Made by a program: the position numbers and the translations under genes. DNA of 64,000 nt from Loripinus fragilis (taxonomy: Eukaryota > Mollusca > Bivalvia > Lucinida > Lucinidae), in the NCBI GenBank assembly GCA_964019695.1, contig OZ026524.1, positions 19,833,509 to 19,897,508 of the forward strand, in the 5' to 3' direction. Under the pieces are notes generated by a model that worked only from the letters and a program-made list of their open reading frames with translations, did not search any database and had not been told where the DNA came from. Each line of letters starts with the position of its first letter. Position 1 is the first letter of the stretch. This document shows, in pieces, positions 14,740 to 62,729 of the stretch.

Positions 14740-15990
14740 TTGTGTGTGAATCCTATCTTGCGGATAAGATTTTCTAACCCAGGGTAAAATCTCATATGCC
14801 CCTATCCGGTGTGCAAGAATAACTGTTAGGTAATGAGGTTAGATAACTTTTCAGTCTCAGTTAAGTTTTTATCTACGTCACTACTTTGTGTGTCCGAGCA
14901 GCAATGGAACTGACGAGACTGCGCGCATGCACAGACTCGACTGAGCATTGGGTGCTCGCCGATGCGATTAAGTATCAAATTATCAGGTTCTGGTCCATGG
15001 TAATTAAGGTTCTGTCAGGTGGGTTTGCTCTCCCGTTGTTAGCAAACAACAAAACCAGGTTTTCTCTCAAACCTAGGGTTGATAGCGTACTTGACCCGAA
15101 TGGGGTGCATATAAAGTTAACATTTTGCTAGTACATGTATTATCATACTACTTACTATGTCAAAGGAGAAGGAAGATTCCAAATAAGGTTAAAGATAAGA
15201 CGGACTTATAGGTCATACTGATTGAGAAAAGATGCATCCATCGGCAGCACACCAGTAAGTAATGCCTACGTATATGTAGCTATCTTAGAGATTACTTTTA
15301 TTTGGAATCCAACATTTAATTATAAATTTGGAGTATCCTTATTTTTAACAGATGGTAAAAGTAAGTAAGGGTGCAAAGATCAGGAATCGATATAATCAAG
15401 TACCACACCTGACCCAGGATACCAATGGGAAAGTGATAAACTCACAGTTAGACACCAACTAACCATCAAACAAACAAAAATCAGATTGTTGGCCCTTAAA
15501 GCAGGCGACACATCCGATTCTTGGCATTCTGGCTTAAGAAGAAATCCCGAATGTTGCTGTGTGGATACATCTTGGGGTCGTGGAGTGTCGTGTACTGTTT
15601 TCGGTTCACTGTGGTATTGCCCTTGACCTCTATCTCCAGTTTTAGAAAAGTTAACCCGGAGCATATCTCCTATATTATTTGAGATAGGAGTCCAAAGTTA
15701 CAAATTCCACTGTCATTGATTTTTATCAGTGGCATTTGTCACATTTTTACACAAATCTTGTACAGCAGTAGCTGGCCAAATTGAAAATGATTGTAATAAA
15801 TGACAAAAACAACTCAAGCTAGCCAACATCTAAATTCATTTTGAAACTAGCCAATATATAACATGTTCCCATGATAACTGACAAGTTCAAATTGAGCCGT
15901 TGCAGCTGTAACTACATCATTGTCGTTAATCGAATATGATGTGTCCTCGACTAATCAGACAACGTGAACTTACCATGACAAGATCAGTGC
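14740..15990. other. Upstream region of the VWDE-like gene
   Basis: Holds the end of a truncated MITE, an unrecognised repeat-like segment around 14886-15131 and, at 15385-15480, a reverse fragment of the repeat family at 5570 and 33229. The open frames 14886-15131 (+) and 15380-15664 (-) have no recognised domain and lie in repeat sequence. No upstream exon was identified. Confidence 0.45.
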
Positions 15991-19515: not shown

Positions 19516-19571
19516 ATGAACCATACCAGTTCAAAGCTTCCACATTTGTTTTTTCGATCTTATGTTTTCAG

Positions 19572-19718
19572 TCCTGTCACTCGATCCATGTACAAATTAC
19601 CTAGACATCAATGAACCATTGAGGAGTGTAAATTATATAGCGAGTAGCAAGGACTATGATCATTTCATCTGTGACAGACTTCTGGCACCGGCCTGGTACA
19701 GATTCACCAGTGGAGCAG
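19572..19718 (+). CDS. VWDE: VWDE-like gene exon 2: first half of D8C-like module
   Basis: After a TTTTCAG acceptor the frame encodes LSLDPCTNYLDINEPLRS, then CDRLLAPAWYRFTSGAG. DPC-NY, the N-region and 'PAWYRF-SGAG' are hallmarks of the D8C/uromodulin-like module found at the N terminus of VWDE and in uromodulin/GP2-type proteins. The exon spans residues 17-66 and carries two cysteines. It ends GCAG|GTATGT on phase 1 and joins exon 3 through a split Gly codon. The protein family indicates a secreted or extracellular-matrix product. Confidence 0.9.
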
Positions 19719-21369: not shown

Positions 21370-21606
21370 GTGGAGACCTGCCAACAGCATGTCCTGCTCA
21401 GTACCACTGTGGCACACATGTACCAATATGGATGAGTGGTTCCTTTCCTTCGGTTGCTGATGGGATAGTCACTAGAAAAGTATGCGGGAACCGGCCATCA
21501 CTCGGATGCTGTGGTTACACAGACACAATAGAAGTGAAAAATTGTGGGACATTTTATGTGTATAATCTCAAACCATTGAGAGGTTGTTCCATGGCCTACT
21601 GTGCAG
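21370..21606 (+). CDS. VWDE: VWDE-like gene exon 3: second half of D8C-like module
   Basis: Residues 67-144 read GGDLPTACPAQYHCGTHVPI, then SVADGIVTRKVCGN, then NCGTFYVYNLKPLRGCSMAYC. 'CGTH-P-W--G--PSVADG-V-R-VC' is the diagnostic D8C core. Eight cysteines are present here, ten with exon 2, consistent with a disulfide-rich extracellular module. The acceptor is AAATAG and the donor GCAG|GTAAGA; both ends are split after the first base of Gly codons, so exons 2-4 share phase-1 boundaries. Confidence 0.93.
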
Positions 21607-24762: not shown

Positions 24763-24825
24763 GCTCAAGGGCCCCTTGTGCGCCTGACAAATGGTCAGCC
24801 ACAGGATTCGAACCAGGTTGTGTAG
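24763..24825 (+). CDS. VWDE: VWDE-like gene exon 4: short linker exon
   Basis: A 63-bp exon between CTTACAG and G|GTATGT encodes SRAPCAPDKWSATGFEPGCV (residues 146-165) plus two split codons (Gly145 and Asp166). VWDE proteins have a comparable short C...W...GC segment directly after the D8C-like module. Phase 1 on both sides matches exons 3 and 5. The exon has no start codon of its own; it is supported by splice signals, phase and family pattern. Confidence 0.82.
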   Translation, partial: AQGPLVRLTNGQPQDSNQVV

Positions 24826-27724
24826 GTATGTACAAGTTTAACTTTAAACTTTTTTTCAGAATAGTGTTATGCTGCATATCAAATTAAAGGGATTGACGGA
24901 TAAAATGACATGCTAGCTTATTTTGCTCTTAAACACTTCCTTGACCCAATGGATTGGGGTCAAAAAAGTCTTTTTTTTCTTTTCTGAAATTAGCAATGTT
25001 GCATATTAAATGAATGAGAATGAAAATAAAACACCTTGCAAGCAAATATTCAGCGCTTTTTCAGCCTCATTTTCCGGATGAGGTCAAAAGGTCAAAACAA
25101 TTTTCTTCTGAAGGTGGTTGCATATTTTGCTCTTGCACACTCCCTTGACCCCTTGAGTGGAGCTTGACCCCTACCCAAGGGGTCAAAAAGTATTTTTTTC
25201 TGAAAGTAGCCATGTTGCATACCAAATTAAAGGAATAGAAGTGTAGAGCACTATAGGCCACTGGCTGGATATGGTTTACCTCCCCCCCAGGGGGAATTTT
25301 GTAGACCATATTTTTCTTAAAGCCCAATGTCTTGCAAGGATTTTGCAACATGTTAGCCCTCTGACAATGGCAGCGTTAAGCTGTAACAGCCTGTTACATA
25401 CGTTACCCTACAAAATATTTGATAATTAAAATTCTTTTTAAGACTTCAGAAAAGTGCAAAAGATGAGGTAAGATTACCAAATTGGTTATATTTTCTAAGT
25501 AAGCTATTACTAGGCCACAGATTTTGACATTTGAAAACAAATATAGTCACCCCGGATGTAGTGTATGTTACATTTTTTTAATTGAAGCCCCTTTTAAATG
25601 ATAAATGCATCTAATGTAGTTTGTCTTAAATTTTATTGAAACCAGTTTATGTTCATTAATTTGGTATCATATTAAAGAATTTTTAATAACCTTTTCAAAA
25701 CTGCAAACATTACTTTTCTATCTTATATACTTTTTGAGTTATTAGATGTTGAACATGGTACCCCCATATCACACAAAAATGTAAAATGTAATTCTCTAGG
25801 CCTCGCGCTGGCTATAGACCCCACCTCCCCCAGGGGGAATTTCGTACATTATAATTTCTAAATACTACATTATAAAGGCCACAAAATGAAATATGTTAGC
25901 CCTCTGAGAGTGGCAGCGTTAGCGGGTAACATCATGTTACGTACGTTACTCACAAAATAACATTAAATTTTCCTGAAAATGCCTCCAACATGACATATTC
26001 AGACCTTTTTTGAAGTCTGGCACAGGTTTAAGAACTTCTTATAACAAGTTACATAATTTCAGCATTTATTTTATAAATTTTTTGAGTTTTTGCCGTTGTA
26101 TATGTTACTTAGTGTTTCATATGTTATTTCCAAGTATCAGTATGGCAGTTATTGACTATACATGTATTACATTCATCAGTGAATGTAGTAAATCTATAAG
26201 GCTGCTATTCAAATGAATTAAAGTTCCTTATTATGGTGTCTTACACTATTTTACAGCCCAGGTTACATACGTTACTCTCTGAATACCATTAAACGTTTAA
26301 GATATGGTCTCCAACACGACCTGCTGGTACGTATTGGCATGCTGGCACAGGTCCATGTACTTCTTTTTACTCTGGCTCATTTGCTGGGGAAATAACTCAA
26401 AACATAAACTACCATAAACCCTCTTTTCTTTTATAGAGACATCAAATATAGTTAACATAATACTCATGGAAAGTTTGTAACATACAGTGCAATATGCGAG
26501 TAACAACTTAAAAGATCACAGAAACCCCATCAGGTAGAAGTTATAGAGCAAATCTTTGTATATTATCCAAGTGTTTAAAGAATTCTAAACAGCATATTAA
26601 TCCTCTATCAGATTCATCTTGCAAGGATTTTGCAATATGCTAGCATTCTGGTAATGGCACCATTACCTTGTAACAGCCAATTATATATATTACCCATCAA
26701 CATCTTTGATAGTTTTAGTAAATGACATGACATCTGAAAAGTGCAAACTATAAGGTAAGATTTACAAATTGGCTATATCATCCACATAAGCTATTTTTGC
26801 ATCACAGATATGGACCTTTGAAAACAAATATTCAACCCAAAGTGTTACGTATGTTACTTTTTTTCATTATTCCTATAGAAATGATTTATGAAACTAATAT
26901 ATTTTGATATTTTTTTAAATGTGAACGTGCTTACTAACTCATTTTGTATCAAAGTATGTTAACGTACCTTTTGGAAACTGCAAATATTATTTTTCTATCT
27001 TTTATATGGTTTGAGTTGTTGAGTTTTGAACATGGTAACCCCATATCACACAAAATGTAAAATATAATTATGTGGCTCTTTTGTTAGGGTACAATCAAGT
27101 TTTCTTTCACCCAGAGGTACTTGATTTCCTTCCCATTTATTTTACACACATTTTGTCCATATCTGAATAGGCTTACTTGTTTTCATGGGAAAGACTTGAT
27201 AGTTCAATCTCTGTATGTACATCTTAAGGACAGAAAAGAAGGGTGGAGGTAATCTCATTTTCATGCCATTTGAAATAGTAAGTATATGTGTATGGCTTTG
27301 GTACTCTTTTCAGAAACATGTCGTACTGCAGCTTATTCACAATTACATAAATAGCACATGTTAGGGCTTCATATCACCGATGAGTGCCTAGAGCAGTTCT
27401 TTATTTGTTTTCCTACCCTGCTTAGAATGTTGATGAACTAGTGGGGGAGGGGTTCTCTATCCGTTTGGTAGGAACAACCTTTCTGTGGTACTAACACATC
27501 GGCACATTGGTAGTGTCACAATCTGTTAAACAGTGTATTACTGTAGATCTCTTCCCCCATATCCTTGCCAATGTTGTTGACATTCAGAAGGTGCACCTTT
27601 TGTTGCATACACCAGTGTTGAACAAAACACCCAGGTAATGATAGTTCTCTATCAGTATATGTGTACATGGAGATGTTAGCCCTCTGAGAGTGGCAGCGTT
27701 AACGTGTAACATTTGTTTCCTTCC

Positions 27725-28066
27725 CATTTATACTGATAGAGAACCCCTCCCCCCCCACTAGAAATTTAAGACTTTATAGACTGCTGCCATTTATACTGAT
27801 AGAGAACCCATCCCCCCCACTAGAAATTTAAGACTTTATAGACTGCTGCCATTTATACTGATAGAGAACCCATCCCCCCCACTAGAAATTTAAGACTTTA
27901 TAGACTGCTGCCATTTATACTGATAGAGAACCCATCCCCCCCACTAGAAATTTAAGACTTTATAGACTGCTGCCATTTATACTGATAGAGAACCCCTCCC
28001 CCCCACTAGAAATTTAAGACTTTATAGACTGCTGCAATTTATACTGATAGAGAACCCATCCCCCAC
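27725..28066 (+). repeat. Tandem array, 62-bp unit, about 5.5 copies
   Basis: Units begin CATTTATACTGATAGAGAAC at 27725, 27788, 27850, 27912, 27974 and 28035 and contain a C-tract followed by ACTAGAAATTTAAGACTTTA. Spacings are 63, 62, 62, 62 and 61, with nearly identical sequence, indicating recent amplification. Single unit-like fragments (TACTGATAGAGAAC / ATCAGTATA) also occur outside the array near 27645. Confidence 0.95.
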
Positions 28067-32395: not shown

Positions 32396-32631
32396 ATGCG
32401 TATCCAAAGATTACCACCAGTCCATCCTTATCATATCCGATTGTGAAGCCCACAACGTTCGAGTTCAAATGTACCGTGAACTTTGACAAGACTAGGAGGG
32501 ATGTTGGTTTTGATGTCACGTGGTTGTTTGACGGTCAACCCGACCCAAACGTACCAAAGGACCACATTAAAGGACCCGCCAGGGAATCCACAATTGACCA
32601 GAAATATCTAGTTGGTCATCTTGGAAAAAGT
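32396..32631 (+). CDS. VWDE: VWDE-like gene exon 5: beta-rich linker domain
   Basis: The exon starts after TTTCCAG and ends GGA AAA AGT|GTGAGA. Residues 167-244 read AYPKITTSPSLSYPIVKPTT, then FKCTVNFDKTRRDVGFDVTW and FDGQPDPN. The C...F-V-W-FDG pattern matches the immunoglobulin-like segment that follows the D8C-like module in VWDE. The chosen donor gives phase 0, exactly what exon 6 requires; an alternative GT two bases upstream would break the frame. Confidence 0.88.
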
Positions 32632-34941: not shown

Positions 34942-35031
34942 ATATCTTGTAAAGTGGACAGCCATTTCCTGACCTCGCCAGGACGAAAAAGCCCGGGTAT
35001 TGCAAGTAAGGGCTACTGGATGGGGATAAAG
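34942..35031 (+). CDS. VWDE: VWDE-like gene exon 6
   Basis: After TTTTTTCAG, 30 codons (residues 245-274) read ISCKVDSHFLTSPGRKSPGI, then ASKGYWMGIK, ending AAAG|GTAATA on phase 0. 'I-CKV' with the C of exon 5 makes the expected second cysteine of an Ig-like fold, so exons 5 and 6 together form one beta-sandwich module. The exon lacks any other indicator, but frame continuity on both sides supports it. Confidence 0.83.
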
Positions 35032-37379: not shown

Positions 37380-37515
37380 CTGTCAGAATCGCGGTTGGTA
37401 GTAGGAGAACACGAGCAACCAAAGGAGGTCAAGATGATATCTACCGTCCCCATTGTGTGTGCTGGAGCTGCGGCTCAGGGCTGCCATCTTGAAGTTTATT
37501 TGGAACCCAATAACC
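37380..37515 (+). CDS. VWDE: VWDE-like gene exon 7
   Basis: After ATTTTCAG, residues 275-319 read LSESRLVVGEHEQPKEVKMI, then STVPIVCAGAAAQGCHLEVY. The exon ends AACC|GTATGT on phase 1; the split codon is completed by AT of exon 8 (His320). 'P-VC....GC-L-VY' fits the region just before the vWD domain in VWDE, where paired cysteines recur. The exon has no ATG near its start and would be missed by simple frame searching. Confidence 0.8.
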
Positions 37516-42185: not shown

Positions 42186-42394
42186 ATGATTTTAAAACAA
42201 CCACAGCGTGTACAGTGACGCTCAAGCCAACCGACTGGAACCCTCTGACCCATCAAGCTGTGGCGAAATTTGATGTGTTGGCAGAGAGAGACTTCAAAAA
42301 TGACAAAGACAAGAATCTAGTTATGCATTTCAGTAAAATATTCAGTGTCGATTCACCTCCTATCTTCAACAATTATCAGATCCCCTATTTGCAG
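42186..42394 (+). CDS. VWDE: VWDE-like gene exon 8: region before the vWD domain
   Basis: Starts after TCTTTATAG and ends TTG CAG|GTATGT on phase 0. Residues 321-389 read DFKTTTACTVTLKPTDWNPL, then AVAKFDVLAERDFKNDKDKN and VMHFSKIFSVDSPPIFNNYQ. A similar 'C-V-LKPTDWNP..H--A' passage followed by a conserved hydrophobic/acidic stretch precedes the vWD domain in VWDE. Strong continuous frame and good splice signals at both ends. Confidence 0.9.
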
Positions 42395-43774: not shown

Positions 43775-43905
43775 AAATGTTAGTAAATGTGGGTGGAATG
43801 TTAGTAAATGTGGGTGGAATGTTAGTAAATGTGGGTGGAATGTTAGTAAATGTGGGTGGAATGTTAGTAAATGTGGGTTAAATCTTAGTAAATGTGGTGG
43901 AAGTC
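43775..43905 (+). repeat. 21-bp tandem repeat, about 6 copies
   Basis: Unit GAATGTTAGTAAATGTGGGTG repeats with almost no change; the last copies are altered. Confidence 0.95.
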
Positions 43906-44735: not shown

Positions 44736-44827
44736 GTTCTCACAAAAGACAAGAAAACCTCAAGATGTTACTGTACAGGGGATCCTCACTGTGTAACCCT
44801 TGACCGAAATAATGATCCAGCCCACAG
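44736..44827 (+). CDS. VWDE: VWDE-like gene exon 9: start of the vWD domain
   Basis: After CAATAG, residues 390-419 read VLTKDKKTSRCYCTGDPHCV, then TLDRNNDPAH, ending CACAG|GTAGGC on phase 2. CxCxGDPH-xTxD is the defining start of a von Willebrand factor type D domain (disulfide and Ca2+-binding acidic residues; GDPH at about 404-407). The phase-2 end is met by the single leading G of both exon 10a and exon 10b. No stop or shift is present. Confidence 0.92.
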
Positions 44828-47044: not shown

Positions 47045-47208
47045 TAGTATATACTATTAAAGCTTCCCATATAGGTAAGTAGAAAGAGTTTGAGATAAAA
47101 ACAAAGATAAAGATTCCCACTGTATTGCTGTACATGCTTCTTAAAATAGATTTTTCACATATACGACATAAGTACAAATTTCTCTTTAGTTGGCGGATAT
47201 CATTTTAG

Positions 47209-47275
47209 GAGACATTACAACTACTATAAAGTTGGAGAGTTCTTAATGTACAAGAGCACAACAAGACCGTTTGAA
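47209..47275 (+). CDS. VWDE: VWDE-like gene exon 10a: vWD domain segment, first alternative
   Basis: 67 bp between ATTTTAG and GAA|GTAAGT. With AG from exon 9 the first G completes Arg420, then RHYNYYKVGEFLMYKSTTRP and FE (residues 421-442). 'YNYYKVGEFLMYKS' is the beta-strand block that follows GDPH in VWDE-type vWD domains. An alternative AG at 47188-47189 would add GGYHF but has the wrong phase for exon 9. A near-identical exon (10b) lies 6.2 kb downstream with the same length and phases, so the two appear to be alternatives. Confidence 0.85.
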
Positions 47276-47349
47276 GTAAGTGGCACAAGCCAAGGTCCCA
47301 CAGAGTTTGCTTGGTCTACCATCATTGTTTTTGTTGTGTTTTAATGTTG

Positions 47350-48185
47350 ATCTAACAAGAGTGCTCACGTTTTATTGAATTTATAAAACAAGTTAAAGAA
47401 AAGAGATAAAATGCGAGCCTCGCCGAGCATTTTATCTCTTTTTCGCAACGAGCTTAATAAATTCAATAATACAGGAGCACGAATGTAAGATTCTATTATC
47501 ACATGACTTTTAAATTATTTAAAATCGCATGATTGGTGTGAAAACGTCAGTAGTTTGCCATCTTCTACGCAACGTTATAATGGACGTCATTACGTTACGC
47601 AGCTAATCTGTAAACCATTAAAGGTATCACACATGTTTTTTTCATGCATTAACATTTGCTGGGTCCCAAAGAAGCTGTTTGAACATGGGGCCGTGAGGTG
47701 GAGTGTTCAAACATCGTCCGAGGGACCCGGCAAGTGTTAATGCAATGAAACAAACATGTGCGATCGTTATTCTTGCATATTTTACCTGATTTCAGCATAA
47801 ACCGCGCTGAATACGTCGCTTAAATATTAGATAGCCCTTTTCTTACACTTGATTTCTCAAAACAAAATGGATTCAGCGTCAAACTTTCGAACGTCATAAC
47901 GTCGCAACAACGTCATATATACGCGTGTAACGTTTTTGCGATCGAAAGCATCGGCAAAATGATCAGTCACGGCCGCAACGCTTTCCATTGTTGTGTCATG
48001 CATGTTTAGGCTTTTTCAAGTAAAAGCCATGTTCAAACAGCACATGAATCTCATGATTTGAACATGGATTTTGCGGCTTCAAACAGCTTCGCGTAACGAA
48101 TTCCCACGTAAGAATAGTGGTTTATCGATTGTATTGCATTTCGTTATATCACTACCAGAGGCGACGTCATGTGATATAATGAAAT
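47350..48185. repeat. Dispersed repeat family E, copy 2, interrupted by foldback sequence
   Basis: Family E sequence (GATAAAATGCGAGCC / GAGCATTTTATCTC, ACAGGAGCACGAATG) runs to about 47620 and resumes near 48118 (GTGGTTTATCGATT, CGTTATATCACT). The interrupting segment has GCTGTTTGAACATGG at one side and TTCAAACAGC / GATTTGAACATGG at the other, suggesting a separate inverted-repeat insertion. Confidence 0.6.
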
Positions 48186-48502
48186 CATTTCTGTGCAAGC
48201 TGTCATCATGATAACACAACAGATACATTTGCTTCGCTTACAACAAAACAACCAGGAGGTATGGCTATGATTGTGTGTCACTGTTTCCTTTGCCTGCGAT
48301 TTTTGCTTCTGCTGGGACGCTCTAGCTTTGAGCTTTTACTTTCAGCATCTGACAATTCCCGCTCGGCTTTATAAAGTCTTCGTCTCTTGGACTGCTAAGA
48401 TTCATCATACGAATCAGGCATCTAAACATACGGTCTGCTTTGCTGCTGCTATCTTCTTTTGGCCCACCTTTAGGCCTGTTGATGGTAAACACTTTCAACG
48501 CT

Positions 48503-48732
48503 TGTTGTGAAATGATTTTGTTTTTGTTTGATTTGATTTTTTACGTCCCATCAACAATCTTTCAGTTATACAGGGACGGGTCTTCCTGGATTGAACCTGT
48601 ACTAAGCTAGGATAATGTGTCTTGCTCAAGGACTACAACGCAGTGATGCCAGTGAGGCTCAAACCCGCGATCCTTCGGTCTCGAGTCAAGCACTCTACCA
48701 CTGAGCCACTGCGCTCCCTGTTGTGAAATGAT
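48503..48732 (-). mobile_element. Full-length tRNA-derived SINE with 14-bp target-site duplication
   Basis: TGTTGTGAAATGAT is duplicated at 48503-48516 and 48719-48732. Between them, on the minus strand, GGGAGCGCAGTGGCTCAGTGG (A-box) leads to a B-box GGGTTTGAGCCTC, a body with TTGAGCAAGACACAT and GGTTCAATCCAGG, and an AAATCAAATCAAACAAAAAC tail. Length is about 202 bp. Same head family as 3949-4100. It lies in the intron between exons 10a and 10b. Confidence 0.92.
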
Positions 48733-49231
48733 GTCAGGATGCCAAGATAACTTTTGTTGAAGCAGTCGCTGATAAAAGTAAGTTGAGGCTAGTCTTTTGA
48801 GCCTATACAAAAGACTAACTGCAACTTATTTGGACCAGTGGCAAAGAATTTTTAGAAGTTGCTGAATGGTCGCAGACAAATTTCCAATCAAGCGCCCAAG
48901 ATTTCAGAGCCAAAGTGTTGATGAAATTAATCGGTGAATGAACGGCAACTTGTCTGCGATCAATCAGCAACTTCTAGAAAACCTTTGCAACCAGTTGCCA
49001 ATCCAAATCATCAGTTGTGGCTAGTCTTTTTTGCATTCTCTAAAGATTGGCCGCGACTGATATTTATCGGAGACCGCTTGGCGACCATGTTGCCACCTTT
49101 GTAAACCCTCCCCTCGAATTCTGCATCCTCTCTGCGATTGTCATTTTTTTAGTCTGCTGTATAAATTATGCCGACTCAAAAATAATTAATTTATTTTTTC
49201 TTTTCAAACTTCTATTTCCTCTTTTGAAAAA

Positions 49232-49289
49232 CAGTGTATATCCAGATCAGCTGGCTTCTTACGAAGCCAGCTGATCAGGATATACACTT
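49232..49289. repeat. Near-perfect hairpin GTATATCC.GATCAGCTGGCTTC
   Basis: Arms of about 26 bp, GATCAGCTGGCTTC-(TTAC)-GAAGCCAGCTGATC plus flanking GTATATCC/GGATATAC. Similar in style to the CAGATC hairpins. Confidence 0.9.
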
Positions 49290-52130
49290 TCATCCACGCG
49301 ATAAATCCTTACTTGTAGCAAACATATATCGTATTGAATACACTAGAATAATCTAACTTTTCTATCGTTTCTTTTTGAGTCAGTATAGCTGTACATTACA
49401 AGAGATTTTTCGTGTTCATTTGAACAAATTTGAAAATGCCGTTACTCATTTATTTCTCAATAAATTTGGTAATAATTGATTTCCATGTGTTAGTCTGATC
49501 TCCAGAAATACGCAGTCATCAAGAAAACAGTTCTTCATTTTTATTTTCTGGTTCACAACAGTGTCTGAAAATGATTAGTCAAATTTTAAGCTTTTAAAAA
49601 TGCTGAATGAAACGAAAGGTACTTAATATTTCTCGAACAATTTCTCTAAAAGATATGAAGGTATTCTCTTGGAACCATTTATATATAGTACATAAATAAT
49701 TAAAGTTTGATCTGTTAGAAAATAAAGCATCTCATTTGGATATTTACTTTTTGGAAGCAACTTGAACATCAAAGGACGTGTAACGGTTTGGCCGTTTATT
49801 GGCCCACGATGGATTTGGCTAAAATTTAAATATATGGTGGTTTGATCTTTGCCCTTTCACATGATTATGTTTTTGAATTAACGACGGCATATGCAGTCAC
49901 ACGAACTAAAGTTTCTCACTAGTGTGTATAAACAGAGGTTTTTTCATGAATGTGGATATTTTTTAAAGCTGCGACAAGCAAGCTGACCTCAAACATAATA
50001 CCAAACATGCGTGTGTTTATACTCGTCATGTCTATGTCGTAATTTGAGCTAACACTACCATCATTAATGAGAAATTATGCTAAAACTTGGCTTAATACTG
50101 TGTTTACGAATACCTTGGTGATATGTTGTTTTTTAATGTAATATATATTGAACATTAAGTGTTTTATCGCCTTATCCAGTTTATCAATAGCTCAAACAAG
50201 CCTATTCCGGTTTATTCATATCAATATAATCAGTAAGACATGTACACAAGCGTGCATGTAACATGTTAAACGCGGCATTACATGCGCAACCTTTTTTTTG
50301 CTGGATTGGTATGAAACATGGATATAAATAGTTATAAAGCTACAGAAATGATAATGGAAACTTTGAACTCTCTTTATTTCTCACAGCCACAATTATTAAA
50401 TAGATACATGTGAGTGTCGTATATATTTGTATGTTCATCTGTCTGTCAGTCCGTCTATATGTCACACTTTTGTGTCTGTGACGTATCTTCCAAACGCCTG
50501 GTTCGTTTATAAGCTTAATTCACAAAACTGTGCACCTTTGTGGATGAACATGCAGAATAAATGAATACTTTAAGGCCATGTCAAAGCAGGCGGTCATAGG
50601 TTACATGTACAGAATGCATATCTGCTCCATATTTTACGCATGTCCCAGCTCAGATATCCAACAGTCGTTATAGCTCTGTGGTCTATGTTACTTACCTATA
50701 ACCTTACTTGTGACTAAGGGGTCGCAGTTCACAATCCCCAAAGAAACATATGTTTTGTGTCATTTTGCAAGACCCTTCATCTTTATTGCGTAATACATGT
50801 TCAACCGAAGAAACGTCATGACTGAAATATGGTTCACTGTATCGTAGAGCAATGACGTAGAGCATTAAAACACTTAGTCATGTTTCAAGCATTTGTGGTG
50901 CAGACATCTATTTCAAGGGTGACAACTTCCCTCAAAGCAGGGATTTCAGAACTGTTTGAACAACCTACATTGTGTTTTGATAAAGGTGAATGAACATCTA
51001 AAATAGAGTATTTCGATCCTTGAATATTAAATGTATGTGTTTGTTGGTACCAGTGACTATTTACCATCTGCAGAAAAGTGGTTGTTGTATATATACTGCA
51101 TTATTTTAGCAAACACTTTACGAGAGCGTTTTCATTGAGGAAACAAACAGTTTAGCACAGATAGTGTGTACATGTAAGCTTGAAAAGCGCATTACACTCA
51201 ATATGAATAAAATGCTTATGGCGTTCGCATTCAGGCCACTGGCTGTTTTTATACATGCTTTCTTACTTAAATAACAATGAATTGAAAAGAACAAAACTAA
51301 ATCAAAGCGTTACATTGGTTTATTTGCGACAATATCTGCGCCACCTATATACATCATATACGTACATGAGAAGTTACGAACTTCAAAAAATATAGATAGG
51401 TGTTAGCTTTGAGGATCAGTTACAATTTATGTTGAGAGTGTGCATTTGTATACATCACAGCAGCTCCTTTTTGTTCAAATAACCTAACGTTAATAATATT
51501 ACGAATAACCTGACACAGTTCTATCAAAATTTTGGAATCATATCAAATGATTCCAATATCTTGGCTGTGAAGTAGCTTTTTGCTCTACCTTATGAACCGC
51601 TAGATTAATTTTATCGAAACTTGCACAGATACTTATCTGGGACAGCCAAAACGAATTATAATATTTTGGTGACCTCAACCTTATTTACAAGGTCATCAGG
51701 GACATATATTAAAATAGTGGCTTGTCTGTACTCTATCTTCCTAACCAATGACCAGATTTTGACCAAACTGACACAGATAATTCATTGGGAAGACCTTAAT
51801 GAATGACAAGAATTCGGTAGTATTGACCTTAATTCCAAGATCACCAGCGTCACATAACTTCTTTAAGTGGGCACCTAATGTTATATACTTTCCATTCCTA
51901 ACTACTCTAGTATGGCCATATTAAACAGTGTCTGACCTGTAAGTTGAGAATACCAATAATTGATTATTTTTTCCTCATGCTCCAAAGAATTATCCACATA
52001 ATTTGCCATTTTTGACAATCTTATTTCAAAGCAATGGGCCATGCCAAATAAAAGTGGCGGTGAGCTGTCTTTTTAAAAGCAGATTGCACCAAAGAACTGT
52101 CTCCAGAAATCTATGTATCAGTTAAAGAAG
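49290..52130. other. Intron 10 sequence, little recognised
   Basis: AT-rich intron. A tRNA-like tract at 50665-50745 has an A-box TATAGCTCTGTGG and a B-box-like GCAGTTCACAATCCC and is probably a SINE fragment. No exon-like segment was found. Confidence 0.45.
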
Positions 52131-52139
52131 GGGCACATC

Positions 52140-52171
52140 AAACTCTCTCCTTGCACCTTCTCTCTCCTTGC

Positions 52172-52210
<39 letters not shown>
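52140..52210. repeat. (CT)n microsatellite with CTCTCCTTGCAC direct repeat
   Basis: CTCTCTCCTTGCACC is repeated twice, then about 16 CT dinucleotides. Confidence 0.9.
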
Positions 52211-52213
<3 letters not shown>

Positions 52214-53430
52214 AAGACTCGCATTTACTGAAATGTTGTTGCATTTGCTTTTCAAACGCAATATATCCGAAGACTGTTTGTAAGAAATAATATTGATACG
52301 AGCTTGCTAATATGTACATTGTATTCCATTTTTGGACGGGAATCTTACGTCTCTCCAGTAATTTTAGTACTCTTAGTGCTTTGATAAGTATGAATTGAAT
52401 AGTACATTTCAGGATAAAATTTGCAGAAAAAGTTTTTTTACGGTATTTGCCGCATGCGGAACCGACTCAGAGTTACCATTTTATGGTGTTATATTATATG
52501 CACAATAAAATGAGAAATATTTTTATCCGGTTCCGCATGTGGACATGTATGTAATTGAGTCACGAAGTACACGAGGGTGTTTGGTTTTACCATAGACTTA
52601 GCGTTAAGTGTGGTTGATAGGGCATGCATTTAACCCCAAAATTTATCATAAAAATACATTTTAATGAAGAAAATAAATTGTGGACATTAAACTAGATACT
52701 CTTAGGTATCATTTGGTAATATTTTGGAGGGATTTCTTTACAATCGAATTTTTACTGTATAAGTGGGCCATTTGTAATACAAAACCGTTACACGTCATTT
52801 TAGGGTTTACAGTTTCCTTTGCAACACGAAATTTTATGAAAAATACTCAAATGCAATATTTGGTATCAGTTTTATCGGCAATAGATAATTAAAATATCTA
52901 AGAAATTGAGTCGGCTGTAAAGTTTCGAAAATTTGTTTTTCAAAATTCTTCCAAGACACATTTTATATATAAGATACCCATTTGGGCACTTGTAGGGAAG
53001 AACTTATCAAATGTAGTTTCCAAGCGAAAACAGGCACACATAGGCTGTTAGTTATTTGAATAATAGACAGAATGTCTCTCTAAACTAAAATAAAATCTCA
53101 AACTTAAATACGTATTTCTTAGAAGATACACGCGTTTTAGCTCTTAAAATCAGTGAAAGGGGTAGGGGATTTATCTAGGGCCCCTGTGTTATTGCTATGC
53201 TTTAAATTGCCATCTTTTTTATTTGACAATAACAGGGACATGCACGTTATGCACGAACAAGCAATTTTTTTGTTTTATTTATATGCAACCGCAAAAAGTG
53301 AAATTCAAATCTGTTCAAATAAACATGAAACAGGTCTCGTATATATTGTAGTCCAATTGCTGGCATAATGCCAGTAGCTTACAGAACTCCTCAAATCCAC
53401 GTTTTTTTCTGACATAAGTCATATACATGC
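52210..53430. other. Intron sequence upstream of exon 10b
   Basis: AT-rich. Open frames at 52680-52892 and 53153-53368 have no recognised motif or splice signal in phase. Confidence 0.5.
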
Positions 53431-53441
53431 AATTATTTTAG

Positions 53442-53508
53442 GCTATACTACAATTACTATAAAGTTGGAGAGTTTGTTATGTACAAGAGTACTAAAAGGC
53501 CTTTCGAG
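53442..53508 (+). CDS. VWDE: VWDE-like gene exon 10b: vWD domain segment, second alternative
   Basis: 67 bp between ATTTTAG and GAG|GTAAGT, encoding LYYNYYKVGEFVMYKSTKRP and FE after the split Arg codon. It differs from exon 10a at residues 1, 2, 12 and 18 (Arg/Leu, His/Tyr, Leu/Val, Thr/Lys) and has eight silent codon changes, so both copies appear to be maintained as protein. Introns around the two do not align except for a few bases at the donor. A donor-like echo (TGAG|GTAAGTGGCATAAAA) at about 53624 may be a relic of further duplication. Confidence 0.85.
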
Positions 53509-53659
53509 GTAAGTGACATAAAACAGTCATAATTACACTAAGACATAATAGAAAATCAGTATTGATTCTGCTGTTTGAGTTAAAACATGATTAAGTATAT
53601 TTATATAAGATATGGCCCTAAAATGTCTGAGGTAAGTGGCATAAAAACATTACAAACTA

Positions 53660-54452
53660 CTGTCCTGCCAGCTAATAGTGACAGTGATACAAAGTTATCC
53701 GGGACTTGTTATCAATAGGTCACTTGTGTATTTATCTGATCCACAGGATAGGATTAATACATCAGTGATCTATCCATTTGCGTAAGCTCAAGTGGAGTGT
53801 TCAAGTTAATGTTTACTTAACAATTATAAACAAAATATACTAGCCAAAAGTTCTAACCCGCCACCTGCATTTCATTAATTTTCTTCAAAATGTAAAATGA
53901 CATGACTACATTTTTCGCACCTCGAAATAGCCACACGTGTCATGTACAGTAGACAGTAAAGATATTGACAACATGTTCAACAGTACATGCAGGATGCCCA
54001 TTTGAATAGTGGTACCCCCATTTTTAAAATTCGCATTTTGGCTCAATTAGTAAGACATGATTTTTTGAAATATCCCACTTTCACGCGCTAAACGTTTTCA
54101 TTTCAAAAGCCAAACTCATATTGAACACGATCGTGCTGAAATGAACACTTCATCTGCATGAGACTCGTTGTTATTGGCCAAAGTGTTGAAAATTACCCCA
54201 CCATCCAATACAAAATCGTGTGAATTTTAAAACTGTGGGTATGTGTATTCGGAAAAGCCTCCCAGATACAATTTTAAGAATTTTGCTAAGCCGTTTTCTG
54301 GTACCATTTACTAATTGGCTGGCCTATTCGGAAATGAAAATGGAATCAATATTGTGCATAAAACTTTTTAGAAAATCGATAAAAACACACGTGGTCGGTT
54401 AAAACTTTTGACAAGTATATTACCTCACATTCACTTTTGGTTGGCACGACAG
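53660..54452. mobile_element. TA-type MITE, family A, enlarged copy
   Basis: CTGTCCTGCCAGCTAATAGT at the left and TTTTGGTTGGCACGACAG at the right, each abutting TA. The left family sequence runs to about 53845 (TAACAATTATAAACAAAATA). The following 580 bp are not family sequence and probably represent another insertion. Confidence 0.7.
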
Positions 54453-54670
54453 TACTTTCAATATAACAGTTAATCAGTTGTGATTCTGTTGTATAAATTC
54501 AAATATGATTAAGTTAAGTTTTACATAACCTGGTCTTTGAAAAACTTAATTCTGTTAAAGAAAAAACACTATTTTCACTTTCTTTTAAGTACAATGTTAA
54601 CAAACACGCATCAATCATAGAAATGTATTTTGACCGCAAGCCAGTCTGGTACATAATACGCATGAATTAT

Positions 54671-55170
54671 CTTAGAAATGAAATTTAATCACAGTTTATA
54701 GGCTTGGCAAAATTATAAACATACACAGTAATCTTAGAAATGATATTTAATCACACTTCATTGGCTTGGCAAATTCATAAACACACACAGTAACCTTAGA
54801 AATGTCATTTAATCACAGTTCATTGGCTTCGCAAAATTCATAAACACACACAGCAAACTTAGAAATGACATTTAATCACAGTTCATTGGCTTGGCGAATT
54901 CATAAACACACACAGCAATCTAATGACATTTAATCACAGTTCATAGGCTTGGCAAATTCATAAAGACACACAGAAATCTTAGAAATGACATTTAATTACA
55001 GTGCATTGGCTTGGCAAAGTCATAAACACACACAGTAACCTTAGAAATGACATATAATCACAGTTCATTGGCTTGGCAAATTCATAAACATACACGGTAA
55101 TCTTAGAAATGACATTTAATCACAGTCCATTGGCTTGGCAAATTCATAAACACACACAGTAATCTAAGAA
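54671..55170 (+). repeat. Tandem satellite, 62-bp unit, about 8 copies
   Basis: Units begin CTTAGAAATGACATTTAATC, contain TTCATTGGCTTGGCAAATTC and end CATAAACACACACAGTAAT. Starts at about 54671, 54733, 54795, 54858, 54919, 54978, 55040, 55102 and 55163 (spacing 59-63). Diverged single units continue to about 55365. Located in intron 10. Confidence 0.95.
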
Positions 55171-55369
55171 ATGATTGTTTAACATAAACTGACAAGTGTA
55201 CTTTGCATATTTAAAAGCACATATCAATCTAAGAAATGACATTTTAACCACCAGTCAGTCTGATTTATTCATAATCATTAAAAAATCACTAAGTAATCTT
55301 AAAAAATCATTTCAACTACGTCCACCCGTTGAATTTCTAAAGTAAGTGGTTATCTTAGAAATGTCGCTT

Positions 55370-62510: not shown

Positions 62511-62729
62511 GTTCAAGCAAGAACATGGCAATGTGGCGCGGTGTCGTGTAACTGTGGTGTCGTGGCTAGAGAGGGCAATGATGTCGTACGGATAGACATG
62601 TGTCACGGCACATATGGTCGTACCTTTCCTAAAGTGACCATCCCAAACAAGGGGAGCTTCTCACAAGGAACCGTTATTCAGAACCAGACAGTCGTCGTTC
62701 AGAAACACCCACATGGAACTAGATACGTG
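62511..62729 (+). CDS. VWDE: VWDE-like gene exon 11: vWD domain core
   Basis: After CATGGCAG the frame encodes residues 443-515: VQARTWQCGAVSCNCGVVAR, then EGNDVVRIDMCHGTYGRTFP, then QNQTVVVQKHPHGTRYV. 'WxCG...SCNCG-VA-EGND----DMC' is highly characteristic of VWDE vWD domains. The exon ends GTG|GTACGT on phase 0; a second GT four bases later is a weaker option and changes the phase. The domain is not complete here; later strands and the EGF repeats of VWDE must lie beyond the window. Confidence 0.92.

What the first reader, a model, noticed from the sequence alone, without database searches (positions are those of the whole stretch)
47209..53508. Candidate mutually exclusive exons 10a/10b inside the vWD domain of a VWDE-like gene
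Seen: exons 47209-47275 and 53442-53508 are both 67 bp, both begin with one base completing the exon 9 codon, both end on phase 0 with GTAAGT donors, and encode homologous 22-residue segments. Of 22 codons, 8 differ silently and 4 change the amino acid, so both are under protein-level constraint while the surrounding introns have diverged. Reading exon 10b after 10a (or the reverse) hits TAA at the seventh codon, and joining exon 9 to exon 11 directly hits TAG within 30 codons. Only one exon can be used for an open product. Family knowledge: mutually exclusive exons typically swap a short, surface-determining segment. Inference: the gene makes two vWD variants (Arg-His...Leu...Thr versus Leu-Tyr...Val...Lys). 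I know of no description of this for VWDE.
Basis: partly seen in the sequence, partly recalled or inferred. Interest (0 to 1): 0.85.

Follow-up and report, generated by a model that had tools for sequence, protein, structure and literature searches.

The report
Paired swappable exons in bivalve gene
A gene that looks like a bivalve gene for a large secreted protein carries two old, intact copies of one 67-base exon, and only messages with exactly one copy can be read through, so it probably makes two slightly different versions of one protein domain; this is a known kind of arrangement, and no RNA evidence was seen here.

Summary
Window 47209-47275 and 53442-53508 are homologous 67-bp exons (15 bases differ; 8 silent and 4 replacing codons of 22) between the same neighbours in a bivalve VWDE-like gene that is open as far as the window shows. 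Either copy alone gives an open product; both, or neither, gives a stop. No second copy of any other recognised exon was found. Silent sites are saturated (10 of 11.5) while 5 of 54.5 replacement sites differ, so both copies were kept as protein code for most of their history. Best reading: mutually exclusive exons policed by reading frame, as in human U2AF1 exons Ab/3, also two 67-nt exons. Exon 10a has an equally scored acceptor AG 19 nt upstream leading straight to a stop, so 10a may be weakly used or dying. A copy of the exon 10b donor region lies 123 bp downstream. Flank pairing was tested only in part, without clear support. No RNA and no second genome could be examined. New member of a known kind; modest interest.

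The parts
19562..19718 (+). first recognised coding exon of the VWDE-like gene (start not determined; a TTTTCAG acceptor-like site lies just downstream of 19562, so a signal exon may precede)
   Evidence: tblastn of four relatives; donor CAG|GTATGT chosen over 19709, the other open join
21370..21606 (+). exon coding the D8C (uromodulin-like) domain; its acceptor also has another AG 17 nt upstream
   Evidence: Pfam PF23283 E 4e-15; tblastn; splice scan
24763..24825 (+). small coding exon
   Evidence: tblastn and open joined frame
32396..32631 (+). Ig-like exon
   Evidence: tblastn, Pfam Ig_VWDE below its cut-off, open joined frame
34942..35031 (+). coding exon
   Evidence: tblastn, open joined frame
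37380..37515 (+). coding exon
   Evidence: tblastn, open joined frame
   Evidence: tblastn, open joined frame
44736..44827 (+). upstream neighbour exon (exon 9), ends with two bases of a split codon
   Evidence: tblastn; frame
47188..47189 (+). competing acceptor AG, 19 nt upstream of the exon 10a acceptor; its use gives the peptide SWRISF then a stop
   Evidence: score -1.4 against -1.2 for the in-frame site, recalled weight matrix
47209..47275 (+). exon 10a, 67 bp, donor GAA|GTAAGT
53442..53508 (+). exon 10b, 67 bp, donor GAG|GTAAGT, branch-point-like CTGAC 30 nt upstream
53594..53685 (+). degraded copy, offset 123 bp, of the exon 10b donor and following intron, possibly with the 3' half of the exon; donor-like GAGGTAAGTGGCATAAAA at 53629-53646
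   Evidence: whole stretch scores 53 against a maximum of 42 in 407 control pieces and 47 in 300 shuffles; the exon part alone is not significant (166 of 300 shuffles as high)
62511..62729 (+). downstream neighbour exon (exon 11); relatives indicate that the gene continues beyond the window
   Evidence: tblastn, frame

Best explanation
An old tandem duplication of one internal exon gave this bivalve VWDE-like gene two alternative exons, 10a and 10b, of which one is spliced between exons 9 and 11. Each exon is 67 bp (3n+1), so messages with both or with neither shift frame, stop early and are expected to be removed by nonsense-mediated decay. What survives makes one of two proteins differing at four residues (R/L, H/Y, L/V, T/K) in the early part of the VWD domain. 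Shown here: anatomy, reading frames, protein-level constraint on the pair, and no second copy of the other recognised exons. Inferred: that both are spliced in living tissue, the decay step, any tissue bias and any functional difference. Exon 10b has the better donor and branch-point-like sequence and is probably the default; 10a is probably the minor or regulated form.
For: Same length, phase, donor and homology, with only single inclusion open. Silent sites saturated (10 of 11.5) while 5 of 54.5 replacement sites differ; Fisher P 7e-7 on rounded counts. In simulation the exact observed pattern (8 silent, 4 replaced codons, no stop) arose in 604, 405 and 106 of 25000 runs (omega 0.05, 0.10, 0.20) when both copies stayed constrained, against 0, 2 and 1 of 25000 when one copy was neutral throughout. 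No indel separates the two exons over 67 bp although 150-nt intron flanks show no similarity beyond controls. No second copy of the other recognised exons, which argues against a gene-cluster artefact.
Against: No RNA seen. Exon 10a's acceptor competes with an AG 19 nt upstream of equal score that would give an immediate stop. Recent loss of one copy is not excluded: with one branch neutral for its last 10% the pattern still arose in 321, 161 and 35 of 25000 runs (omega 0.05, 0.10, 0.20). Both acceptors score weakly (-1.2, -2.1), though the D8C acceptor of the same gene scores -1.1. No relative was shown to have both exons. Frame alone may not be the whole story: in human, reads joining both exons were found for only 83 of 377 clusters with exons not divisible by three, so its authors infer tight splicing control for most (PMC5740500 section 7).
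Confidence: 0.66

Rival explanations
1. Only exon 10b makes protein. Exon 10a is a formerly used copy whose acceptor has recently been captured by an upstream AG, so its inclusion is unproductive; it is on the way to decay or serves only as an off switch.
For: Competing AG at 47188-47189, scoring -1.4 against -1.2; the two best branch-point-like sequences for the in-frame site lie upstream of that AG. Using it gives a stop after six codons. Exon 10b has the stronger donor (8.0 against 4.0) and branch-point-like sequence. Neutrality for the last 10% of a branch is only about 2 to 3 times less likely than full constraint.
Against: The D8C exon of the same gene also has an AG 17 nt upstream of its acceptor, so this layout need not disable an exon. 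The coding part of 10a is intact, and long neutrality is disfavoured.
Confidence: 0.23
2. The two copies belong to two tandem genes, or to alternative first or last exons, and only look like alternatives of one gene.
For: Three Mercenaria relatives are each listed with the same longest-contig length, 88078429, so gene clusters may exist; duplicated gene clusters are a recognised source of false predictions (PMC3228551 passages).
Against: No second copy of six other exon peptides (D8C, Ig, 7, 8, 9, 11) at E up to 20; the two exons are internal and phase-matched to the same neighbours.
Confidence: 0.04
3. Both exons are used one at a time, but the choice is enforced by intron RNA structures or bound factors rather than mainly by frame and decay. 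This overlaps with the best explanation on what is made and differs on how.
For: Known for other genes (PMC5740500 section 7; PMC7969005 abstract). Inverted repeats with one arm near each exon exist: 46348-46388/47018-47058 upstream of 10a, 47350-47414/47427-47491 downstream of 10a, 49397-49434/53304-53341 upstream of 10b; they were not followed up. One of 15 flank pairs (10b upstream with 10b downstream) exceeded all 12 of its shuffles, by 1.9 standard deviations.
Against: None of the 15 pairs of 400-nt flanks exceeded 2 shuffle standard deviations, and one pair beating 12 shuffles is about what chance gives. The 10a-10b intron is 6166 nt, too long for steric blocking, and an AG 23 nt upstream of the 10b acceptor argues against a distant branch point. 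Both donors are GTAAGT.
Confidence: 0.15

Closest known systems
Human U2AF1 exons Ab and 3 (PMC5224494, introduction read in full; passages)
   Same: Two tandem duplicated 67-nt exons; isoforms differ in few residues (seven there, four here) inside one domain; transcripts including or excluding both contain stop codons. There they are reported as downregulated by NMD.
   Different: Unrelated gene and domain (UHM there, VWD here); RNA, protein and decay evidence exist there and not here.
Mutually exclusive exons predicted by length, frame and homology (WebScipio; PMC3228551, passages)
   Same: Meets the three published criteria: about the same length, conserved splice pattern and frame, sequence similarity.
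   Different: One case read from raw sequence in a bivalve gene, without transcripts.
Frame-incompatible human exon clusters (PMC5740500, section 7 read)
   Same: 377 (60%) of 629 human clusters contain exons with lengths not divisible by three, as here.
   Different: Human clusters were validated by splice-junction reads; joining reads were seen for only 83 of the 377.
OGDH exons 4a/4b (PMC7969005, abstract)
   Same: Two mutually exclusive exons of one gene.
   Different: Enforced there by distant branch points in a size-restricted intron; here the intron is 6.2 kb and an AG lies 23 nt upstream of the 10b acceptor, so that mechanism is unlikely.

Membership tests
Mutually exclusive exons | similar length | tested here: met
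   67 and 67 bp
Mutually exclusive exons | compatible splice sites and same reading frame | tested here: met
   AG and GTAAGT in both, same phase; note the extra AG upstream of 10a
Mutually exclusive exons | sequence homology of the encoded peptides | tested here: met
   18 of 22 residues identical; 52 of 67 bases
Mutually exclusive exons | internal exons of one gene with the same neighbours | tested here: met
Mutually exclusive exons | splice-junction reads from each exon to the flanking exons | not testable with these tools
   no RNA reads available
Mutually exclusive exons | double inclusion or skipping gives no functional product | tested here: met
   stops in the three double or skipped joins tested
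VWDE-like gene | D8C domain, Ig-like VWDE domain, then VWD domain | tested here: inconclusive
   D8C met (56 bits, cut-off 27); Ig_VWDE 21.9 bits, below its cut-off of 28.1; VWD not detected in the truncated window product but present in relative P0006, to which the exons align
VWDE-like gene | homology to annotated VWDE-like proteins | tested here: met
   P0003 (Mya, named VWDE-like) E 6.7e-66 and P0001 E 2.7e-131; P0006 E 2.2e-72 over the VWD region
Docking/selector-controlled exon cluster | complementary intron elements near the alternatives | tested here: inconclusive
   15 pairs of 400-nt flanks, none beyond 2 standard deviations, one beyond all 12 shuffles; more distant inverted repeats not tested

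The most novel reading that the evidence does not exclude
The locus is a three-state switch: productive 10b, productive 10a, and an unproductive 10a made with the upstream AG, so that choice between two acceptors 19 nt apart tunes both which VWD variant is made and how much protein is made; and the silent-site saturation means this has been kept for a very long time in bivalves.
Probability: 0.1. Interest if true: 0.5.

Novelty: new member of a known kind. Interest (0 to 1): 0.32.

Why it matters
If both exons are used, a bivalve makes two versions of a secreted VWD-containing protein from one gene, and the pair is a parallel, even in length, to the U2AF1 case. It would be a place to watch how a duplicated exon is kept, tuned and lost, since the intact pair and a degraded donor copy lie within about 6.5 kb. 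The arrangement itself is well known.

Tried and rejected
Own-genome search (genome search, the same request each time) did not complete. Other copies in the assembly could not be sought.

Structure: one AlphaFold job on a Mercenaria relative (P0002) with six sequences gave mean pLDDT 36.4 and was not used.

Pairing between 400-nt intron flanks: 15 pairs, 12 shuffles each, none beyond 2 standard deviations; one pair (10b upstream/downstream) beat all 12. The longer-range inverted repeats were not tested.

Degraded copy near 53594 as an internal control for decay: weaker than it first looked. The whole stretch is significant, but its exon part alone is not (166 of 300 shuffles as high), nor is its match to the 10a region (51 of 300). 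The donor pattern was written after seeing the copies. I therefore do not count it as evidence for constraint on 10a.

A weak minus-strand match of the exon 10 peptide at 15757-15801 (E 0.002; 30 of 45 bases) is treated as chance.

The four variable residues against relatives (P0001, P0002, P0003, P0006, P0007, P0008): at L/V one relative has L and one V; at H/Y two have Y and none H; at T/K one has T and none K; at R/L none has either. This does not tell which copy is older.

The third protein search gave 9 proteins, 7 of them labelled ena and most looking like single-exon open frames; only the distant P0016 covers the exon 10 segment.

Papers (listings): 0 with VWDE and 'mutually exclusive exons'; 14 with 'mutually exclusive exons' and bivalve; 5 with VWDE and bivalve; 8 with 'mutually exclusive', 'exon duplication' and mollus-; 0 with the four VWDE/splicing/mollusc terms. 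No bivalve paper was opened.

tRNA and Rfam scans of the window gave nothing.

Full report
What is there. The window carries the first part of a VWDE-like gene on the + strand. tblastn with four relatives and splice-site joining give coding exons at 19562-19718, 21370-21606, 24763-24825, 32396-32631, 34942-35031, 37380-37515, 42186-42394 and 44736-44827, then the pair 47209-47275 and 53442-53508, then 62511-62729. Joined with 10b they give an open 502-residue product; two joins passed, 19718 being preferred over 19709 for its donor, and the start of the first exon is not settled. From exon 9 to 11 the frame is equally open with 10a. Relatives of about 1120 residues indicate that the gene continues past the window. 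An early exon codes a D8C domain (Pfam E 4e-15). The VWD domain is not scored by Pfam in the truncated window product, but the relative P0006 has it at residues 396-559, and exon 10 aligns to about 417-440 of P0006.

Relatives. The five hits of the first search include a hypothetical protein of Potamilus streckersoni (51% identity over the whole query), a Mercenaria mercenaria protein labelled isoform X2, a Mya arenaria VWDE-like protein, a Crassostrea virginica protein and one unnamed. The second gave two more Mercenaria proteins and one unnamed. The lineages of Potamilus, Mercenaria and Mya were looked up and are bivalves; that Crassostrea is one is recalled. No species could be assigned to the window.

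The pair. Both copies are 67 bp, begin with the third base of a codon split from exon 9 and end in phase 0 with GTAAGT. 15 bases differ; 8 codons differ silently, 4 change the residue, 10 are identical. The similarity stops near the exon edges. Splicing both, in either order, or neither, runs into a stop. The stop met in double inclusion is read from the shifted Tyr-Lys codons TAT AAA of the segment (sequences). The other recognised exons have no second copy in the window.

Constraint. By the Nei-Gojobori count, 10 of 11.5 synonymous sites and 5 of 54.5 nonsynonymous sites differ; silent change is saturated and dN is 0.098. Three simulations were run. One search, conditioned on 7-9 silent codons, found at most 4 replacements in 6 of 158 and 2 of 125 runs with one neutral copy (the other at omega 0.05 and 0.1), 169 of 1439 with one copy at omega 0.5, 2101 of 4096 with both at omega 0.1, and 0 of 16 with both neutral. 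One search, conditioned on 8 silent codons, gave 3 of 56 and 4 of 70 for a fully neutral copy against 3191 of 4170 and 1833 of 4669 for two constrained ones. One search asked for the exact pattern, unconditioned, in 25000 runs per setting. Both constrained: 604 (omega 0.05), 405 (0.10), 106 (0.20). One copy neutral for the last tenth of its branch: 321, 161, 35. Last quarter: 86, 49, 22. Last half: 14, 18, 2. Whole branch: 0, 2, 1. Long neutrality is disfavoured; recent loss is not.

A degraded neighbour. Offset by 123 bp from exon 10b lies a degraded copy (53594-53685) of its donor and following intron, with a donor-like 18-mer at 53629-53646. Its alignment score, 53, exceeds the best of 407 control pieces, 42, and of 300 shuffles, 47. 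The part that would match the exon is not significant alone (166 of 300 shuffles as high), so it may be a donor and intron duplication rather than a dead exon. It could act as a decoy donor.

Splice sites. With a weight matrix recalled from vertebrate consensus, 10b has the better donor (8.0 against 4.0) and a CTGAC branch-point-like sequence 30 nt upstream; the acceptors of 10a and 10b score -1.2 and -2.1, and only rank in the top 18% and 25% of 3443 plus-strand AGs, so the matrix discriminates poorly. Exon 10a has another AG 19 nt upstream scoring -1.4; using it adds 19 bases and gives SWRISF and a stop. This is the strongest point against equal use. The D8C exon of the same gene has an AG 17 nt upstream of its own acceptor, which scores -1.1, so the layout is not disabling by itself.

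Mechanism. The reading frame alone would make surviving messages carry one exon. The 6166-nt intron makes steric blocking unlikely, and an AG 23 nt upstream of the 10b acceptor argues against a distant branch point. Fifteen pairs of 400-nt flanks showed no pairing beyond 2 standard deviations, one beating all 12 shuffles; longer-range inverted repeats were not tested, so structural control stays open. The layout is that of U2AF1, where two tandem 67-nt exons give transcripts with stops when both or neither are included, downregulated by decay (PMC5224494 introduction). [quoted passage not shown] The published criteria for predicting such exons are met (PMC3228551 passages). Annotated tandem duplicated exon events in human are mostly ancient (PMC9741552 passages).

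Verdict. Mutually exclusive, frame-policed exons are probable (0.66) but rest on sequence alone; a dying exon 10a is the main rival (0.23), and control by splicing itself overlaps with the first (0.15). It is a new member of a well-known kind.

Noticed in passing
window 53594-53685: Degraded copy, offset 123 bp, of the exon 10b donor and following intron, with an intact donor-like 18-mer; could act as a decoy donor.
   Followed up: yes
window 47188-47189: Competing acceptor AG 19 nt upstream of exon 10a; its use gives an early stop.
   Followed up: partly
window 62511-62729: Exon 11 carries seven extra residues (near TVIQNQTVVVQKHP) compared with the Potamilus and Mercenaria relatives aligned.
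   Followed up: no
window 54669-55174 and 27724-28064: Two minisatellites with different consensus units that both have a 62-bp period (8.2 copies at 88% and 5.5 copies at 98% matches).
   Followed up: no
window 43776-43902: 21-bp tandem array, 6.1 copies, in the intron before exon 9.
   Followed up: no
window 46348-46388/47018-47058, 47350-47414/47427-47491, 49397-49434/53304-53341: Inverted repeats with arms near exons 10a and 10b; may be mobile-element remnants or pairing elements.
   Followed up: no
window 58402-58490/62315-62403 and 59922-60018/61512-61609: Long inverted repeats in the intron between exon 10b and exon 11, possibly from mobile elements.
   Followed up: no
Mercenaria proteins P0002, P0006, P0008: Three VWDE-like relatives are listed with the same longest-contig length, 88078429, which suggests a gene cluster; P0002 is labelled isoform X2.
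   Followed up: no
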